Source of the DNA: JAGLHV01 sp023132075 [NCBI: bacterium]
Lineage (GTDB): Bacteria; CBDUZB01; JAGLHV01
Assembly (NCBI GenBank): GCA_023132075.1
Contig: JAGLYT010000097.1
Location: 1-6,315, forward strand
Length of the DNA: 6,315 bases
Reading direction: 5' to 3'
The notes under the pieces: model-generated
Databases searched by the model: none
What the model saw: only the letters and a program-made list of their open reading frames with translations
What the model was told of the DNA's origin: nothing
Position numbers and translations under genes: made by a program
Shown here: piece by piece, positions 1-6,315 of the stretch
How the letters are laid out: each line of letters starts with the position of its first letter
Numbering within the stretch: position 1 is the stretch's first letter

Positions 1-3000
1 GTTAAGAGTGGTTCTTTTATTGATTCTAAAGAAGAGTTGTTAGGGTTTATAAAAATTGCGGGAAAAGAAGCAGGCTTTACTAAATTTGTGATAAAGTCTT
101 CTATTTTTGTTCGCTTCCCATGGTTAAGGAAATTCTTTAAAATGGATGAATCAGAAGTAGCTCTTTCTGTGCCTATGGACGAATTAGATTCGGGAGAGGG
201 GATAATTCATGGACATATTCTGGAAATTCCGCAAGGATTTGTAAATGAGGTTTATAAAATTTATCAGAAATGGCCTTTCTTAGCAGTAGCAATGGTGGAT
301 GCTATTGTTTGTCATGAAGAAGCACATCAGAAGAGTGAGATAACGGGATTAGATGACAAGTCAAAAGCAGAAGCAGAAGTAGAGGCAAGTGCATATCTAT
401 TAAAGAAGCAGGGTTTATGGGGAGCAGCTCTTTTTATCTGGTATTTTACTTATTATTTAAATACCAGGGCAACGGTTGAGTATTGTATAGAATGGTTTGG
501 ATTTAAGTTGGACGGGGAGCAGATTGAACGGATTAATGAGCTGGTAAAAAAGATAGATAAAGAGTATTCAAAAAAAGGAGGGGAGAGGGCGAAGAGATAT
601 AGAAGAAAGGTTTCTTCTCTGCCTGCAGAATTACATGTTCCGGATGGGCCTATGAAAACAGGGATATTTTATAAAGAAGGGGTTGAAGGTGTAACCTTAA
701 CTCCGGAAACAGTAGAAGTTGTTGATGAGGGAGAAAAAGCCGCACTTATGGAAGAATTTATTGAAAAATTCTTAGTTCTTTTTAATTATTTTCATGAGGA
801 ACGTTCTTTTGCTCGAGATTATGGCAAACATATTTATGATATAGAAATTGAAGAGGTTTATGAATTAGCTGCAAAAATAGATCTGAACTTTGATAAGGAG
901 ACAACAATATTGGTAGATTATATAAATGATTGGGGAAGAGACCCGATGAAAGGAGAAAAGGCTTTTTCTTCTCTTCAGGAATTTTTAGATAGGTTTAATC
1001 CATATTTAATTAAATATGGTTACTATTTTTGTTTAGATATAACCAAACCTTATCCTAAACCCTCTTTTGTTGGGCGGTTTAATAAATTGGAAGAAGCCTA
1101 TGTTGATAATCTTGAAGGGGAGAGACAAACTTTTAAAGTTGTATATTTAGAAATGGTAAACATACGCGATTATTATTGGGAGCCGACCGCGTCTGTTTAT
1201 TTATTGCCGGCTAGCAAAGAAGTAATAGTTTTTGAAGATTTATTAAGAACGGAAGCCGAAGAATGTGTTGAAGGGATAGAATCTTTTAGACAAGGGGCAT
1301 CAGATGCTTTATTAAAAGAGTTTGCTTATAAACAGTGGGAAGAAATTGCGGAATTACCCGAAGGAGAAATTATTGAACGCATTACTAAAGATTTAATTTC
1401 TTCCGGTGCCATAGAAGGAATAAGAGGAGCAACGGACATTTTCTTTATAGAAAGACCAAAGACGGAAGAAAAAGATAGTCCATATATAGATGAAGAGCAA
1501 AATATTTTAGCACAAAAATTAGCAGGGTTAGCTTTAGGCCCCATACCTTATTATTGTTTGGGAAAAATTGTCGATGAAAATGAAAAATACAAGTATGATC
1601 AAATATGCAGAGATATTGTCGAATTTTTTGTAAGTGAGATAGAAGGGATAAATGTAATAATAACCGACGAAAATATGTATGAAAAAATGGAACTGTTAAA
1701 AGAATTAAATAAGTTTACTATTAAAGAATATGCCGAAAAAATGTACAAGAAAAGAATAGGTGGTGAATTAGTTACAGGTTTTTTAAAAGAATTAAAAATG
1801 GAAGATTTATTAGATGATTTAACAGTGGGGGATATAATTAGCGGAGAAATTGGTATAAATTCAGTTCCGCTTGATGTATTAGAGCAGAGTTTTATCCTGA
1901 CAGGAAAAGTGGGGAATGATGATATAGTAGGGTGGGATACAGTCGTAAATACTTTAAAGCTGGAAGATGCTAACCCGGAGGATATAGTAGCTAAAAAAGT
2001 GGAAGAACTTATTAAAACACAAGAAGAATGGGAAAAGATGACAAAGTTATATCCCTATTTAGAAATGGTAAAATATGAGGAAGTAAGAAAAACTACTTAT
2101 TTATCCCTTCATTGGAATGCATTAAGAAGACTTTCAATATTTAATAAATATGAAGAATTAGACATAAATCGGTTTAAAAAAGAAGGAGATTATATAGAAA
2201 CTGAAATAAAAAAATATGAGGATTTAATTTATGATATTGAGGCTGAAATAGATAAAAATGAAGAGATAAATGATGACCAATCAGACTTTCAGAAAAAGAT
2301 TAATATTGAGCTTGAAAAGGTTGATACTACAATTGAATCTTACGAAAAACAAATAAGTTCTGTCAAATTGGAAATTGAAGAATTGAAAGAGAAATTAATG
2401 CTTTTCGGTAAAGGTAACCGGATAAAAGAAAAACAAACAAGCATAGATAATCTGGAATCGAAGATTGAAAAACTTAACAATGAAAGAAATGATTTACGTG
2501 AAGTTCGTTCTACAACAAGAGAGGATGTAGAGAACCTTACCGTTAAAATTATGGAGCAACAAAAAGAAGTAAATAAATACAAAAAGATTATTGAGGATTT
2601 GGAATTGAAAATAGAAGAACCGGAAACAGAAGAATCCTCTTTAGTGATGGGGGTAGTATCTGTTCCGTTTATTAGTCTTTTCTTTGGTCTGCCTATAGAG
2701 TGGGGATTTTTAATAGGAATGGTTGTTATTTTAGGAATGAATTTATTTAGTAAAACAAAAGTGAGTCAAGAAATTACCCATATAGAAGTAGATGCTACAG
2801 AAATTGAAGAACTTTTACAGAAAAATATAGAGACGCCTATAAGTGTTGAACAACGGAAAAAAATAAAGGAAAGTCTCATTAAACTTTTACCGGAAATGGG
2901 CAAAGAAATACCACAAAAAGTCGATATAGTTTTTCGTCTTGCCCAAAATTGGGCGTATTGGGGATTAAAAGCTGAAGATATAGAAAATATTCTTTTTTCA

Positions 3001-6000
3001 TTAAGTGGAAAAGGTTGGCTGAGTGGTTTAAGCAGGGAGCAAATTAAAACAATTGCCTTGGAATCGGAAATAAATCCAGAAAACCCGGAAATTAGTGATA
3101 CTGATAGAATTTTAAATATAATATCTTCAGAGCATTTGGAATCTAAAAGACAACTTTTGGTTGATATAATTAATTATCTGGATAGAGAAAGTAAAGATGA
3201 ATTTACTACTGCCCAGGTAAAGGCAGCAGGGTTTACTAAGATTCATAAAAGTGAAACAGAGGAAAGAAGGAATGTTCGGATTGATACCGAATTGCGCTAT
3301 TTATTGGATAACGGATTTATTGAAAGAGTTTATGATGAAGATGGCAAATTAAAGCAGGGCAGTAGACGATTGACTCAAGCAGTTAAAGCAGTAAAAAAAG
3401 AATTATTAGCTCAACAGGTTAGAGACTTTTCTTCTGTAAAGCAAAGAAGTATAACAGCGGCAGTAGATAAAATCGAAGAAGGGATGCCATATAAAATTGA
3501 ATTTGAAAATGACAGAGTAATTGTAAACAAAATTGAAGGAGGAAAGAAATACGAATGGGGTGGTAGTGGTGACATTGTTTATAGTAAAGTTTCAGAGTCT
3601 TTATCATACAGGGGGCATAGGGCTATTTTAACTAGGTCGCGCGAAGAATATAAGGAATTTGTACATAATAAAATGGAAGAAGCCGTTGCTGTTCTTGAAA
3701 AAGAGATTTTTCTAAAAAACGTACCTCTGGATGATTTTCAAAAGATTCTTATGTTAGGGATAGGTACTTCTTTGGCCGAAGTTGAAGTAGTTTTAGAAAA
3801 GTTTAGTAATACAAAAAAAATTGTAATTGTAGATTTTTCAAAAGAAAATATTTTAAGTTTAGTCAGTGAAGTTTTAAAATTGCCTGAAAGTGTTCAGCAA
3901 AAAATTACCATTTATCAAGCGGATGTAAGAAAAATGCCTTTTGAAGAAAATACTTTTGATTTACTAATAGGATTTAGAGTTTTAGTGGGTGAAATTTTAA
4001 AAGAAGATTTAGAAGAGGCATGGCATGAAGCAGAGAGAGTGTTGAGAAGAGGTGGGATAGGTATAGTTTCTACAACGGTATTTGATAAATTTTCTTCACA
4101 ACAATTAAAAATATCTGGAATTCGTTATGTCAAACCAAGAGATGCAAAGGATGTTTTTGTTTTACCTCAGTATTCAACAGAAGGGGAGCATACGGAAGAT
4201 GTGATAGTATGGCAAAAAAATGAAGAACCAGTTGAGGAAAAAAAGTCAATAAAAGAGTCTTCTTTCATGGAAAATTACAAGAGTTTAGATAATAAGTATT
4301 CATTTATCAAGAAAAAAACAATAGTAATAGCGGAAAGAGAGTATATTATTAGTTCAGATGGATGTTCAGCCCCATTTATAGCTACTTTTCAAATAGGCCC
4401 TTGTGTTGTAACACTATATGATAAAAAATCAAAAATAGGATGTATTGCTCATTTTGATAAGGGGATAGATGTAGCAAAATCAACGGAAAAAATATTAAAG
4501 GAAATGGCATCTCATAATGTTGATATATCTTCTCTTGAAGTAAATCTTTTTGGAGGAGATAAAGGTTTCTCAGAAGAAATGATATCGGAAATGAAAACTG
4601 AATTAGAGAAGAGAAAAATTAATAATGTAAAAGAAGACCTTTTTGGGGAAAACCAATTAAGACATATTCTTTTGGATACAAGAACAGGGAAAATATATTA
4701 TCTTAGAGATGACGAAGATGTTTTTACTGATGATGATTTTGGAAGAAGTGTAGAAGTGCATAAAAGTGCTATCATTGTATATAGAAATGATGAAAGAGGC
4801 ATTGGCATATCTGAAAAATTTGATAAAGTGATAAGCGAAGATAAATTTATTCCTATTAAATTTTTGATGCAGGATGAAAATTATTGGTCAGAAGAAATTT
4901 TGAATGCTTTATCTCCTGAATTCAAGGAAACGAAAGAAGTTTTTATTTTTACCCATTTATTTTCTGATGAAATTCTTGTTAAACAAAATGAAAAGGGTAA
5001 ATACAATTCTTATATTAAAGAAGTCAAAGATATATTTGAATATAGTAATATTCCAATAATTATATTTGTTGAACAAGATTTAAACGGAAATTTATCGCAT
5101 ATAGAAAAGATAAGAGAGTGGAATATTAATGTTCCTATTATTGTAATACCTACAGAAATGGGAAGTTTACTCCCCATAGAAAGTATTTGGAATTGGAAAA
5201 AGATAATTCCTTTATTTAATAAGTGGATAAAAAAAGCTTACATTGGCGGGGAAAAATCAAATGTTTGTGTTTCTCTTATAGACCATGAATTGACGCGAAA
5301 TCAAATAGAAGCAATTACTCCTAAAGATATTGGATACCCCCGTATTCAATCAAGAGATGAATCAAGTGTATATGAGCATTTATTAAATAAATTTCGCGAA
5401 AATAGTTGGAATAGGGTCCTAGGCCTATTTTTAGCCGTATTGGGAACAGGTTTCCTTATGTCTCTTTTCGGGATTATGCCTGTGGAGGCAGCAGCAGCGC
5501 CGGAAGTGTCAATGGCAACCACTGGGATCATGTTTAATTTCCCGGTGATAGGAATAATGGTATTCGGCATTATATCCATGGGTTTAGTTTTGAGGTGGAT
5601 AATAAGGGCAAAAGCCGGATTTCTTTCAACCAAACTAATACTGGGAAGTGTCGCCGGATTGATTTTATGTTTTAGTCTGGGGCAGTTTGATTGGTTTGGT
5701 GCAGCCTTAGGTATATCTTCCGGAATTTTATTTTTAGGCACGATAAAAGAGGTTAAAGGAATTAAAATCAACAATTTTCAGCAGGCAGTTATATTACAGG
5801 AGATAATCAATCGGAAAACATTTACCATTCCACAAATAGTTAAGAAAACCGGCTGTTCAGAAGGAAATTTAAGAAATTTATTAAAACAACAGATAATAGG
5901 CCCGCTGGTAGATGTTATCCGGCCGGAAAAAGGAAAACGGCAGCCGAATAAATATATTTTTAAGTTAGGAGCTAAAAAAATCATATCCGATGAATTAAAA

Positions 6001-6315
6001 AAATCTGAGTTCCGGGATATTCTTGAGCAACAAAAAGAATTAGAAAAAGCTTTGCGAAAGCATCTTAAAAGAGCTAAAAAAATAAGTCTAAAATATAAAT
6101 CAACAGTAGATTTAGAACAATTTATCAAAGATCTGGAGAAACATATTGGGTATAGACAATATGCAAAATTAATTAGTGATAAAGAATATGGTTTTTCACA
6201 TAGTTTAGATATTGTAGAGTTATCTTTATTGCTGGTCAAAAAGCAGAAAGAATGGACTAATGATATAGATTGCACCTTGCTGGTTCTGGGAGCGTTCTTG
6301 CATGATATATCTGTC
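1..6315 (+). CDS. Internal part of a giant multidomain membrane-associated protein (both ends outside window)
   Basis: Frame 1 encodes 2,105 consecutive residues without a stop. At this base composition a random frame would meet a stop roughly every 14 codons, so the openness alone proves coding. The translation is protein-like throughout and carries ordered domains: HExxH peptidase-like, coiled coil, membrane hairpin, winged helix, SAM methyltransferase, CheD-like, alpha/beta, four membrane helices, winged helix and the start of an HD domain. The first in-frame ATG is at 142, but the frame is open to base 1 and reads as ordinary protein before it, so the true start is probably upstream. The last domain is cut mid-fold, so the gene continues downstream. 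No single known protein has this architecture to my knowledge. The full-length function is unknown; I infer a membrane-tethered, mainly cytoplasmic enzyme scaffold. Giant genes of this style are known in Omnitrophota, which is my best guess for the source. Confidence 0.96.
178..600 (+). other. Domain: zinc-metalloprotease-like segment (HExxH-X18-E), about residues 60-200
   Basis: Residues 105-109 read HEEAH, a zinc-metallopeptidase HExxH motif, sitting at the end of a predicted helix (VAMVDAIVCHEEAHQ). Exactly 18 residues separate H109 from E128 in the following helix (AEVEASAYLL). This is the HEXXH-X18-E spacing of gluzincin peptidases, in which the two histidines and the distal glutamate bind zinc and the motif glutamate activates water. 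The E-x-E-A-x-x-x-x-L pattern after the motif also recalls the third-ligand helix of M48-like peptidases. A hydrophobic helix follows at about 139-153 (LWGAALFIWYFTYYL); it may be part of the fold or membrane-associated. The preceding residues (HGHILEIPQGFV) may form a strand and loop typical of small peptidase folds. Assignment rests on the motif and spacing only; a structural rather than proteolytic role is possible, and no family can be named with certainty. Confidence 0.55.
658..2160 (+). other. Unassigned region, about residues 220-720, no recognised domain
   Basis: About 500 residues join the peptidase-like segment to the coiled coil. I recognise no family. The first part (about 245-345) is helical and acidic. 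Residues 335-410 look strand-rich, with hydrophobic stretches such as YGYYFCLDI, FKVVYLEMV, ASVYLLPA and EVIVFEDLL, suggesting a small alpha+beta domain. Residues 415-480 return to helices. Residues 500-600 (KLAGLALGPIPYYCLGKIV and onward) are mainly helical with one strand-like piece, INVIITDEN. Residues 600-700 contain a mixed section (VGDIISGEIGINSVPL, FILTGKVG) followed by helices that run toward the coiled coil. Two short similar phrases, DDIVG and EDIVA, occur at 640-664 but do not define a repeat. Structure prediction would be the best way to divide this region. Confidence 0.6.
2164..2616 (+). other. Domain: long coiled coil, about residues 722-872
   Basis: Roughly 150 residues are dominated by Glu, Lys, Ile, Leu, Asn and Asp, with hydrophobic residues at heptad-like spacing (for example LEIEELKEKL at 790-799 and LESKIEKLNNERNDL at 818-832). 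Proline is absent from 722 to 871, ending at EEPE near 872-875. A short glycine-containing break, LFGKGNR at 801-807, probably marks the turn between two antiparallel helices or a stutter. The region is followed directly by a membrane hairpin, so the coiled coil likely stands off the membrane on the cytoplasmic side and may drive oligomerisation or act as a spacer. It carries no enzymatic motif. Low-complexity charge patterning makes distant homology searches through this part unreliable. Confidence 0.85.
2641..2751 (+). other. Transmembrane hairpin, about residues 881-917
   Basis: Two hydrophobic segments lie back to back: LVMGVVSVPFISLFFGLPI (881-899) and WGFLIGMVVILGMNLF (901-916). Only the short LPIEW turn separates them, with a single acidic residue at 900. 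The flanks are strongly charged: an acidic EEPETEES stretch before and SKTK after. This is the geometry of a re-entrant or two-pass membrane hairpin that leaves both neighbouring regions on the same side, most simply the cytoplasm. The second helix is only about 16 residues long before SKTK, so a half-membrane hairpin is also possible. It separates the peptidase-like and coiled-coil part from the methyltransferase and CheD-like part. Confidence 0.85.
2761..3141 (+). other. Unassigned helical region, about residues 921-1047
   Basis: This part follows the membrane hairpin and is predominantly helical by eye, with amphipathic pieces such as VEQRKKIKESLIKLLPEM (949-966), VDIVFRLAQNWAYWGL (974-989) and DIENILFSLS (993-1002). 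A proline- and acid-rich section at 1024-1034 (EINPENPEISD) looks like a loop before the winged-helix-like segment. No family is recognised. It may be a helical adaptor that packs against the winged helix. Confidence 0.5.
3142..3405 (+). other. Domain: winged-helix-like segment 1, about residues 1048-1135
   Basis: The order of elements fits a winged helix: helix (RQLLVDIINYLDRE, about 1050-1063), short strand and helix (FTTAQVKAAG, 1068-1077), a charged helix in the recognition position (EERRNVRIDTELRYLLDNG, about 1087-1105), then a two-stranded wing (FIERVYDEDGKLK, about 1106-1118) and a C-terminal helix (RRLTQAVKAVKKEL). The phrase LRYLLDNGFIERV is typical of the end of helix 3 running into the wing. 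Winged helices bind DNA or mediate protein contacts; in a membrane-tethered giant protein either is possible. An insert of charged residues (IHKSETEERR) makes the second half divergent. I judge the fold by pattern only. Confidence 0.5.
3643..4218 (+). other. Domain: class I SAM-dependent methyltransferase, about residues 1215-1406
   Basis: The Rossmann-like signature elements appear in order. Motif I is KILMLGIGTSLAE (1248-1260), giving the G-x-G SAM loop at G1253 and G1255. Motif II ends strand 2 with an acidic residue, KIVIVDFS (D1278), which usually contacts the ribose hydroxyls. Motif III is YQADVRKMPF (D1308, near the adenine), followed by the motif IV strand NTFDLLIGF (1317-1325). The helix and turn before strand 5, EAERVLRRGGIGIVST (1343-1358), is characteristic of UbiE/type 11-like methyltransferases. 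A final strand, EDVIVWQKN (about 1399-1407), closes the sheet. Motif I is divergent: the usual acidic residue two before the first glycine is M1251, and the third glycine is S1257, so activity is likely but not certain. The substrate cannot be deduced. A charged linker (EEPVEEKKS) leads straight into the CheD-like domain. Confidence 0.85.
4309..4704 (+). other. Domain: CheD-like glutamine deamidase, about residues 1437-1568
   Basis: CheD proteins deamidate glutamines of chemoreceptors using a Cys-His-Thr site. Here the match runs the full length of a CheD (about 130 residues). An N-terminal strand carries IVIAEREYIIS. The catalytic region is ATFQIGPCVVTLYD then IGCIAHFD, with candidate nucleophile C1468, general base H1484 and T1462. 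The Thr-to-Cys spacing of six equals that in the characterised Thermotoga CheD, and Cys to His is 16 against 17. The family's FGG turn is present as NLFGGD (1515-1520). The C-terminal signature appears as KEDLFGENQLRHILLDTRTGKIYYL, corresponding to the E-D-x-G-G...G-R...F-D...T-G of CheD. The family GSC is GPC here, and one glycine of the late GG is lost. No receptor, CheC or other chemotaxis gene is in the window, so the target is unknown. It may act on another part of the same giant protein or on an unrelated substrate. Confidence 0.8.
4918..5295 (+). other. Unassigned alpha/beta domain, about residues 1640-1765
   Basis: Alternating strands and helices are visible: strand EVFIFTHLF (1646-1654), helix YIKEVKDIFEYS (1671-1682), strand IPIIIFVEQD (1684-1693), helix LSHIEKIREWN (1698-1708), strand VPIIVIPTE (1711-1719), then tryptophan-rich helices (ESIWNWKKIIPLFNKWIKKAY) and a final strand NVCVSLIDHE (1754-1763). 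This suggests a small Rossmann-like or receiver-like sandwich, but no nucleotide-binding loop, phosphoacceptor pattern or catalytic set can be pointed to with confidence. It follows the CheD-like domain after a 70-residue mixed section containing an acidic DDEDVFTDDDFG stretch (1570-1581). Family unknown. Confidence 0.45.
5407..5754 (+). other. Cluster of about four transmembrane helices, residues 1803-1918
   Basis: Four hydrophobic segments are visible: VLGLFLAVLGTGFLMSLFGI (1806-1825), about 1843-1864 (IMFNFPVIGIMVFGIISMGL and onward), KLILGSVAGLILCFSLG (1878-1894) and FGAALGISSGILFLGTI (1899-1915). Basic residues sit before helix 1 (NKFRENSWNR), between helices 2 and 3 (RWIIRAKAG) and after helix 4 (KEVKGIK), which by the positive-inside rule puts all three in the cytoplasm. 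The loop between helices 1 and 2 (MPVEAAAAPEVSMATT) would face outside. Helix 1 with its basic lead and the VEAAAAPE exit resembles a signal peptide with an A-x-A cleavage site, so internal cleavage by signal peptidase is conceivable. The DNA here is GC-richer than the flanks. No channel or transporter family is recognised. Confidence 0.87.
5764..5982 (+). other. Domain: winged-helix-like segment 2, about residues 1922-1994
   Basis: Directly after the last membrane helix comes a compact helix-turn-helix pattern: helix 1 FQQAVILQEIINRK (1926-1939), helix 2 TIPQIVKKTGC (1942-1952) in which the IVKKTGCS phrase is a typical HTH turn, helix 3 SEGNLRNLLKQQII (1953-1966) as recognition helix, then a wing-like basic section (VDVIRPEKGKRQPNKYIFKL, 1971-1990). 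The NKYIF strand closing the wing is common in winged-helix transcription regulators. Being placed against the membrane and before an HD domain, it may be a sensor-output or protein-contact module rather than a transcription factor. It is not obviously a copy of the first winged-helix-like segment. Confidence 0.6.
5983..6147 (+). other. Basic helical linker, about residues 1995-2049
   Basis: A lysine- and glutamate-rich helix (for example ILEQQKELEKALRKHLKRAKKISLKY, split over 2007-2032) connects the second winged-helix-like domain to the HD domain. Net charge is positive in the second half. It may be a short coiled coil or a signal-transmitting helix of the type often found before HD hydrolase domains. 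No motif is present. Confidence 0.5.
6148..6315 (+). other. Domain: start of an HD-type phosphohydrolase, residues 2050 to window end (cut)
   Basis: HD domains are metal-dependent phosphohydrolases acting on nucleotides or cyclic dinucleotides. The first His element appears as GFSHSLDIVELSLLLVKK (H2067), corresponding to the family's H-S-x-x-V helix that supplies a metal ligand. The diagnostic LHD follows at the expected distance in a hydrophobic helix, TLLVLGAFLHDIS (H2101-D2102). The window ends three residues after the HD pair, so the later His and Asp ligands cannot be checked, and neither activity nor subfamily (HD-GYP, YmdA/RNase Y-like, PgpH-like or other) can be decided. Placement after a four-helix membrane cluster resembles membrane-tethered signalling HD proteins in general terms. 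Confidence 0.75.

What the first reader, a model, noticed from the sequence alone, without database searches (positions are those of the whole stretch)
4309..4704. CheD-like deamidase embedded in a giant membrane protein away from chemotaxis genes
T1462, C1468 and H1484 keep the CheD active-site pattern, and the FGG turn and late D..TG signature are also present. CheD is normally a small stand-alone protein acting on chemoreceptors with CheC. Here it is an internal domain between a methyltransferase and an unknown alpha/beta domain. It may deamidate glutamines on an unexpected target, or on the giant protein itself.
Basis: partly seen in the sequence, partly recalled or inferred. Interest (0 to 1): 0.75.

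Follow-up and report, generated by a model that had tools for sequence, protein, structure and literature searches.

The report
Deamidase-like domain inside giant protein
A giant membrane protein of an uncultured bacterium carries a probably working amide-removing enzyme domain that resembles a chemotaxis enzyme and, more strongly by profile score, an unnamed family of probably exported proteins in other bacteria, so its job is probably not chemotaxis.

Summary
T1462, C1468, H1484, the FGG turn and the late DTRTG lie where stated, in one uninterrupted 2105-aa frame open at both contig ends. A single-sequence AlphaFold2 model of aa 1437-1568 (best of five: pLDDT 75, pTM 0.75) matches T. [quoted passage not shown]

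It is not a CheD by CheD's own marks: below the cut-offs, and without the LP after the active-site His and GxRN. Its best profile match is an unnamed stand-alone, probably exported family in 14 of 349 sampled genomes of one phylum: 62 bits versus 31 for a CheD profile. Across the window and these 14, the only invariant residues are T, C, A, H, G, G. A tree puts the window between this family and CheD, inside neither.

The genome has MCP, CheA, CheB and CheW; no CheC and no other CheD were detected. Most likely it is an active amidohydrolase module outside chemotaxis; substrate and location unknown.

The parts
1..6315 (+). part of one giant multi-domain membrane protein gene, open at both contig ends (2105 aa)
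   Evidence: shared modules with G000:C91 and the congener's 7631-aa frame
4309..4704 (+). CheD/NTAN1-like (CNF1/YfiH-like) cysteine hydrolase domain, aa 1437-1568
4333..4347 (+). E1445-R-E-Y-I1449, strand shared with the exported family (there mostly Q-R-E-Y-I)
4384..4386 (+). T1462, position of CheD Thr21 / NTAN1 Ser69
   Evidence: residue roles in PMC7022378 passages
4402..4404 (+). C1468, putative nucleophile (CheD Cys27 / NTAN1 Cys75)
4450..4452 (+). H1484, putative general base (CheD His44 / NTAN1 His92)
4552..4557 (+). G1518-G1519, invariant GG
3721..4080 (+). class I SAM methyltransferase domain, about aa 1241-1360
   Evidence: Methyltransf_11 E 4.1e-9
4705..5370 (+). region after the domain, aa 1569-1790; no clear family and no usable model
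2641..2736 (+). hydrophobic hairpin, aa 881-912
   Evidence: hydropathy scan
5371..5616 (+). membrane module aa 1791-1872, three copies in the congener's 7631-aa frame

Best explanation
Aa 1437-1568 form a catalytically intact CNF1/YfiH-like cysteine amidohydrolase: Cys1468 attacks a carboxamide, His1484 activates it, and Thr1462 orients the His. It releases ammonia from a Gln or Asn side chain, or from a terminal Asn, of a protein or peptide. It belongs to a lineage between CheD and an unnamed, probably exported NTAN1-like bacterial family. It serves as one module of a giant membrane protein that also carries a methyltransferase and a zincin-type motif, and it has no part in chemotaxis. Shown here: sequence, fold match, conservation of the triad, and absence of residues conserved in CheD. 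Inferred: that it is active, that the reaction is deamidation, and that chemoreceptors are not the target. The substrate and the side of the membrane are not known; charges flanking the membrane stretches weakly suggest the cytoplasm.
For: Fold: CheD Z 14.5, NTAN1 13.0, YfiH-type up to 11.0; Foldseek E 1.4e-8 and 1.8e-6. Triad: T, C, H (plus A, G, G) are the only invariant columns in 15 sequences, the other 14 being 14-31% identical to the window. Profiles: exported-family HMM 62.1 bits versus CheD HMM 31.3 bits on P0001, best of 5000 shuffles 9.8 and 10.1; the same exported-family HMM gives 30 CheDs at most 30.5 bits. hhalign E 1.4e-16 against 14 exported rows versus 1.1e-9 against 6 CheD rows. 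CheD-conserved residues absent. Two congeners have MCP and CheW domains but neither this domain nor a CheD match. Triad roles: passages of PMC7022378.
Against: No biochemical data for this lineage. The tree puts the window outside the exported clade (99/94) as well as outside CheD (99/98); its nearest row by path is a CheD (3.91), then three exported rows (4.07-4.15), and its highest identity is to a CheD (31%). It is also 31% identical to another ordinary CheD. CheD and the exported family are themselves related (hhalign E 3.5e-12), and the CheD HMM scores one exported row, L087, at 34.6 bits. The position just before the Cys is Pro, where 13 of 14 exported proteins and NTAN1 have Thr, so substrate binding differs. 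The structure came from one sequence; the other four models had mean pLDDT 56 to 39; the longer model is poor. Only one copy of the domain is known, so selection on it could not be measured.
Confidence: 0.67

Rival explanations
1. It is a displaced CheD: this domain deamidates the organism's chemoreceptors from within the giant protein.
For: It is the only CheD match found in a genome that has MCPs, CheA, CheB and CheW. CheD is the top fold match and the nearest row by tree path. F1523 is kept at the GGAxMF position, and loss of its Met could simply go with the lack of CheC: M101 and F102 of B. subtilis CheD were conserved in species with CheC, not in those without (PMC3513319 passages).
Against: Both held congeners have MCP and CheW domains without any CheD or this domain. 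M101A and M101E in B. subtilis CheD had little deamidase activity on McpA (PMC3513319 passages), and the aligned residue here is Gly. LP and GxRN are missing. CheB is present and could do receptor deamidation (general knowledge).
Confidence: 0.1
2. It is an effector-type deamidase: a giant surface or prey-contacting protein carrying enzyme modules, with this domain modifying proteins of a partner or prey cell.
For: Its best profile relatives look exported: a hydrophobic 12-mer over 2.2 within 33 aa ahead of the QREYI strand in 12 of 14 (L081 scores 2.03; in L086 the 12-mer lies 165 aa ahead), against 0 of 30 CheDs ahead of LGSC; a crude hydropathy measure. Giant proteins of Omnitrophota were proposed to act in predation and contain methylases and peptidases (PMC10066038 and PMC12419801 passages). 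A zincin motif and membrane modules are present.
Against: The organism's lifestyle is unknown and it is not shown to be an Omnitrophota. A SAM methyltransferase and, in my reading, winged-helix-like and HD-like parts suggest cytosolic chemistry. That the genomes with the exported family are predators is not established: there is only a size match of one genome to B. exovorus.
Confidence: 0.25
3. Self-modification: the domain deamidates residues of the giant protein itself, or acts with the adjacent methyltransferase on one substrate.
For: Adjacency to the methyltransferase domain.
Against: Target sites were not looked for; adjacency alone is weak.
Confidence: 0.1
4. The domain is a catalytically dead structural or binding module.
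For: Pfam cut-offs are not reached; the residue before the Cys departs from most relatives.
Against: The triad is kept at 14-31% identity with little else invariant.
Confidence: 0.15

Closest known systems
CheD, chemoreceptor glutamine deamidase (T. maritima, PDB 2F9Z chain C)
   Same: best fold match (Z 14.5, 20% identity), Thr/Cys/His pattern, GG turn, late TG
   Different: lacks LP after His, Met of GGAxMF and GxRN; below Pfam and NCBIfam cut-offs; internal to a giant protein; no CheC detected in the genome
NTAN1, N-terminal asparagine amidohydrolase (human, PDB 6A0E; PF14736)
   Same: second fold match (Z 13.0, 18% identity); Cys-to-His spacing 16 here, 17 there; slices score 21.0-23.1 bits against PF14736, cut-off 24
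   Different: Thr instead of Ser69; Gly-Pro instead of Thr73-Thr74; the C-terminal substrate region could not be tested
Unnamed, probably exported CheD/NTAN1-like family (loci L074-L087)
   Same: best profile match (62 bits; hhalign E 1.4e-16); same invariant T, C, A-H, GG; REYI strand; D two after the active-site His in most rows
   Different: stand-alone, mostly with a signal-like N-terminus, Q of QREYI, Thr before Cys (13 of 14) and a C-terminal RH..S, all absent in the window domain; window outside its clade
YfiH / YlmD / peptidoglycan editing factor
   Same: same superfamily fold (Z up to 11.0)
   Different: 7-12% identity in the VIA rows; no profile match
Giant proteins of Omnitrophota and related phyla
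   Same: very long frames with several membrane stretches and embedded methyltransferase and peptidase domains (literature passages and one section)
   Different: the phylum here has only 3 held genomes of one genus; the word CheD does not occur in the main texts of PMC10066038 and PMC12419801

Membership tests
CheD (PF03975, NCBIfam CheD models) | profile score over the curated cut-off | tested here: not met
   22.7 of 25 bits on the slice, 23.5 on the 132-aa domain; NCBIfam best 23.1 of 240
CheD (PF03975, NCBIfam CheD models) | alpha-beta-beta sandwich fold of CheD | tested here: met
   2F9Z chain C Z 14.5, rmsd 2.2, 127 of 132 residues aligned
CheD (PF03975, NCBIfam CheD models) | Cys/His/Thr catalytic residues in register | tested here: met
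   HMM alignment and alignment with six CheDs; Thr itself is in 19 of 30 CheDs
CheD (PF03975, NCBIfam CheD models) | LP after the active-site His (L 30 of 30, P 29 of 30 CheDs) and GxRN (G and N 30 of 30) | tested here: not met
   gaps at L, P and G; E and M at the R and N columns of the window
CheD (PF03975, NCBIfam CheD models) | GGAxMF (M and F 25 of 30 each), CheC interface, conserved in species that have CheC | tested here: not met
   window GGDKGF: A and M lost, GG and F kept; interface role and its link to CheC from PMC3513319 passages, so absence weighs little against CheD
CheD (PF03975, NCBIfam CheD models) | CheC partner in the genome (not universal among CheD species) | tested here: inconclusive
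   no match in 3 of 3 genomes at E <= 0.1, but the own genome is 86.7% complete and CheC is not universal
CheD (PF03975, NCBIfam CheD models) | deamidates chemoreceptor glutamines | not testable with these tools
   needs an assay
NTAN1 (PF14736) | profile score over the curated cut-off | tested here: not met
   23.1 of 24 bits on the 132-aa domain, 22.5 on the slice
NTAN1 (PF14736) | catalytic Cys/His plus Ser/Thr helper | tested here: met
   C1468, H1484, T1462; Thr replaces Ser69 as in CheD
NTAN1 (PF14736) | Thr73-Thr74 just before the Cys, binding Nt-Asn | tested here: not met
   G1466-P1467; roles from PMC7022378 passages
NTAN1 (PF14736) | appended C-terminal region with Ser254, Thr255, Glu260 | tested here: inconclusive
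   extended model pLDDT 44.5; Pfam match stops at profile position 116 of 270
Exported CheD/NTAN1-like family (A7) | profile similarity | tested here: met
   62.1 bits, best of 5000 shuffles 9.8; hhalign probability 98.8
Exported CheD/NTAN1-like family (A7) | falls inside the family's clade | tested here: not met
   the 14 rows exclude it at 99/94
Exported CheD/NTAN1-like family (A7) | signal-like stretch, QREYI Gln (invariant in the 14), C-terminal RH..S | tested here: not met
   E1445 in place of Gln; embedded; I see no RH..S between the domain and aa 1790 in the translation

The most novel reading that the evidence does not exclude
The window domain and the exported family together are a previously unnamed branch of secreted or surface deamidases, used by bacteria that attack or cling to other cells to modify partner proteins; here the enzyme has been built into a giant membrane protein as one of several effector modules.
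Probability: 0.2. Interest if true: 0.75.

Novelty: new variant of a known kind. Interest (0 to 1): 0.52.

Why it matters
CheD is known as a chemotaxis protein and NTAN1 as a eukaryotic N-degron enzyme. A bacterial lineage between them, outside chemotaxis, with probably exported stand-alone members and an embedded member in a giant protein, would extend protein deamidation to the cell surface or to cell-cell contact. It also gives giant proteins, whose functions are mostly unknown, one module with a concrete, testable activity and a single-residue control (C1468).

Tried and rejected
Ordinary CheD: rejected as membership on cut-offs, LP and GxRN, though it remains the top fold match and the nearest row by tree path. 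Ordinary NTAN1: rejected on Thr73-Thr74 and cut-off; a structure match alone was not taken as membership. BLF1 (Z up to 7.2) and CNF-type (Z 5.2) matches are under the Z of 8 that the tool warns may mean only a common arrangement; nothing is built on them.

Chance resemblance: rejected by shuffles, fold match and conservation.

Close relatives: none confirmed by the exact-peptide scan of genome contigs, where 110 stretches matched a pattern; no match by tblastn in plasmids and phages at E 1 or by phmmer in the PDB at E 10. In 97 other genomes the 189-aa slice found nothing at E 0.01. The 132-aa slice found 18 of 386 genomes at E 0.1, own included, of which only the first few are convincing.

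The exported family by HMM in 365 genomes: 26 matched at E 0.001, but above 40 bits only the window's genome and G269, both of which are in the model; the rest scored 19-38 bits and several places coincide with CheD loci. So the family looks rare outside G269's phylum, in a thin sample. PF14736 itself: 6 of 386 genomes at E 0.01, G269's place among them, none over cut-off; that search missed the window because its first look passed no candidate, and the same family in the three genomes of the phylum found nothing.

CheD inside other long frames: frames of 1140, 944 and 626 aa hold no other Pfam domain at E 0.001 and CheD at their C-terminal end, so they look like stop-free upstream reading, not fusions.

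Whether the region after the domain is an NTAN1-like C-terminal part: the model was too poor, so no structure search was run with it.

Named relatives of the giant protein: one record, JAUVLC010000008.1, titled 'Clostridia bacterium', taken as the congener's contig because length and match place agree. A paper search on CSMAG or cold seep gave 1,172 papers, five listed, none of the five with CSMAG.

Dropped rows and limits: L035 (a duplicate of L034) was left out of the tree of 44 rows. The CheD HMM used the 30 best-scoring match rows, those fetched, out of matches in 112 genomes. hhalign compared 6 CheD rows with 14 exported rows, so depths differ. Upstream residues of L075, L086 and L087 were trimmed before A5 and A7. 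The signal-like measure is plain hydropathy on stop-to-stop frames, not a signal-peptide predictor. My first CheD motif filter caught 8 of 30 loci and was replaced by phmmer.

Full report
What is there. The window is an entire contig (G000:C387) and a single reading frame of 2105 aa runs through it, open at both ends. The genome held is 1.87 Mb in 389 contigs, 86.7% complete. Its phylum, as held here, has three genomes of one genus.

Is it a real domain? On the 189-aa slice, Pfam gives CheD 22.7 bits (E 1.2e-4, cut-off 25) and N_Asn_amidohyd (NTAN1) 22.5 bits (E 7.1e-5, cut-off 24), both just under their cut-offs. Six NCBIfam CheD models match the slice at E 7.9e-5 to 0.023, far below their equivalog cut-offs. 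An HMM made from 30 ordinary CheDs aligns T, C and H with CheD's active-site columns and scores 31.3 bits; the best of 5000 shuffles reached 10.1. AlphaFold2 on the domain alone, without relatives, gave pLDDT 75.1 and pTM 0.75 for the best of five models; the other four had mean pLDDT 56 to 39. Foldseek's first seven PDB hits are CheD (2F9Z) and NTAN1 chains. VIA-align gives CheD Z 14.5 (rmsd 2.2, 127 aligned), NTAN1 13.0 and YfiH-type proteins up to 11.0; BLF1 (up to 7.2) and CNF-type (5.2) lie in the range that the tool calls unsafe. I could not read coordinates, so clustering of the triad is inferred from the near-full-length superposition. The predicted hairpin also fits: C1468 begins one strand (model residue 32 of 32-38) and H1484 lies near the end of the next (48 of 43-49).

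Is it CheD? Not by CheD's own marks. In the alignment with 30 ordinary CheDs, the window lacks the LP that follows the active-site His (30 of 30 and 29 of 30), the GxRN G and N (30 of 30 each), the Lys before GGA (30 of 30), and the Met of GGAxMF (25 of 30). It keeps G, C, D, H, GG, F, L and a few others. In B. subtilis CheD, M101 and F102 lie at the CheC interface and M101A and M101E had little deamidase activity on McpA; but these two residues were conserved in species with CheC and not in those without (passages of PMC3513319). Equating the GGAxMF Met with M101 is my alignment. Its loss here may only reflect the lack of CheC, so LP and GxRN weigh more.

What is it closer to? A search of 386 genomes with the 132-aa domain gave, after itself, a 222-aa frame in G269 (E 8.1e-7, 26% identity), then ordinary CheDs (next E 9.4e-6, 38% over a shorter stretch). 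The G269 protein has a signal-like N-terminus and the same REYI...T-x5-C...AH.D...GG pattern. Searching a sample of G269's phylum found it in 14 of 349 genomes, G269 included. In these 14, Thr six before the Cys is present in 14 and Thr just before the Cys in 13. A hydrophobic 12-mer over 2.2 lies within 33 aa ahead of the QREYI strand in 12 (L081 scores 2.03; in L086 it is 165 aa ahead), while 0 of 30 CheDs pass 2.2 ahead of LGSC. So I call the family probably exported. An HMM of the 14 scores 62.1 bits on the window slice (best of 5000 shuffles 9.8), twice the CheD HMM; it gives the 30 CheDs 0.6 to 30.5 bits, and the CheD HMM gives the 14 from 2.2 to 34.6 bits. hhalign agrees: E 1.4e-16 against the 14, 1.1e-9 against six CheDs, and 3.5e-12 between the two families. 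With the window added, the only invariant columns of 15 rows are T, C, A, H, G, G. Thirteen of the 15 rows, window included, match PF14736 at E <= 1 (best 9.8e-7) and 2 match CheD, the window being one. Of four members tried against NCBIfam, none came near a cut-off; L087 matched three CheD models, best 31.6 of 240 bits.

A maximum-likelihood tree keeps the 14 together (99/94) and the 29 CheDs together (99/98), with the window on the branch between them. By path its nearest row is a CheD (3.91), then three exported rows (4.07 to 4.15); its highest identity, 31%, is to a CheD. So the window domain is a third lineage. I claim kinship with the exported family on profile scores, not membership, and the tree does not decide between the two sides.

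Whose proteins are these? G269 is one contig of 2,657,893 bases, and B. exovorus JSS is given as 2.66 Mb in PMC7137782 (passage). That is only a size match, so a Bdellovibrio identity, and with it predation, is a guess.

Chemotaxis. The window's genome has two MCPs, a CheA with receiver, CheB, a receiver protein and a double-CheW protein on contigs C334, C45 and C118. CheC gave no match in 3 of 3 genomes at E 0.1. The only CheD match in the window's genome is the window itself (E <= 10). Both congeners have MCP and CheW domains but neither a CheD match nor this domain. The domain is therefore not needed for that chemosensory system in the genus, as far as these incomplete genomes show.

How unusual is the embedding? 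In 386 genomes, 112 have a CheD match at E 0.001. Besides the window, three match rows lie in frames over 500 aa (1140, 944, 626), which look like stop-free upstream reading. The sample is broad and thin.

The giant protein. A congener's contig (taken to be JAUVLC010000008.1) carries a 7631-aa frame that runs to the contig end and has SecA-DEAD-like and TPR domains. It shares a membrane module with the window three times (44-56% identity). A second contig of the window's genome, C91 (1275 aa, open at both ends), shares another module with the window and a HExxH-bearing one with the congener. The window also has HEEAH at aa 105, a methyltransferase (E 4.1e-9), hydrophobic stretches at about 881-912 and 1807-1893, and an HD-like end. 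The domain lies between the two hydrophobic regions. Positive residues on the flanks weakly suggest a cytoplasmic side, while the relatives look exported; this conflict is unresolved.

Literature. Giant proteins with methylases, MPTase peptidases and membrane segments have been described for Omnitrophota and linked to predation (passages of PMC12419801 and PMC10066038). One section of PMC12057145, read in full, reviews giant genes in related phyla. The word CheD does not occur in the main texts of PMC10066038 or PMC12419801. Searches for CheD, deamidase and NTAN1 (41 papers, 20 listed), for CheD with polymorphic toxin or deamidase domain (1 paper) and for bacterial NTAN1 (31 papers, 12 listed) listed no paper that, from title and start of abstract, describes such a bacterial family. 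[quoted passage not shown]

Mechanism. By analogy with NTAN1 and CheD (passages of PMC7022378), C1468 would attack an amide with H1484 as base and T1462 orienting it, releasing ammonia. The Gly-Pro before the Cys, where NTAN1 has its Nt-Asn-binding Thr73-Thr74, argues for a substrate other than Nt-Asn. Activity, substrate and location remain to be tested.

Noticed in passing
L074-L087 (14 loci, e.g. L074:1498-2163): Unnamed, probably exported CheD/NTAN1-like family with invariant T, C, AH, GG and a conserved C-terminal RH..S motif; in 14 of 349 sampled genomes of one phylum; no NCBIfam match near a cut-off in the four members tried.
   Followed up: partly
window 5371-5616: Membrane module with an AAAAPE stretch after a hydrophobic segment, resembling an internal signal peptide; three copies in the congener's 7631-aa frame. 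Could mark internal cleavage of a giant polyprotein.
   Followed up: partly
window 313-327: HEEAH zincin-type motif near the start of the window; a different HELRH-bearing module occurs on G000:C91 and twice in the congener's frame.
   Followed up: no
window about 6142-6306: HD-type phosphohydrolase-like motif (H...HD) just before the contig end, by eye and pattern only.
   Followed up: no
L054 (G000:C334): Chemosensory cluster: Cache-HAMP MCP, CheA with receiver, CheB, receiver protein, beside an ABC-type substrate-binding protein; no CheC or CheD on this contig stretch among the frames scanned.
   Followed up: partly
L008/L009 (G002:C178): Congener's contig with a 4244-aa and a 7631-aa frame on one strand, the latter with SecA-DEAD-like and TPR domains. 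The NCBI title of the record taken to be the same contig says Clostridia, while here the phylum holds only this genus.
   Followed up: partly
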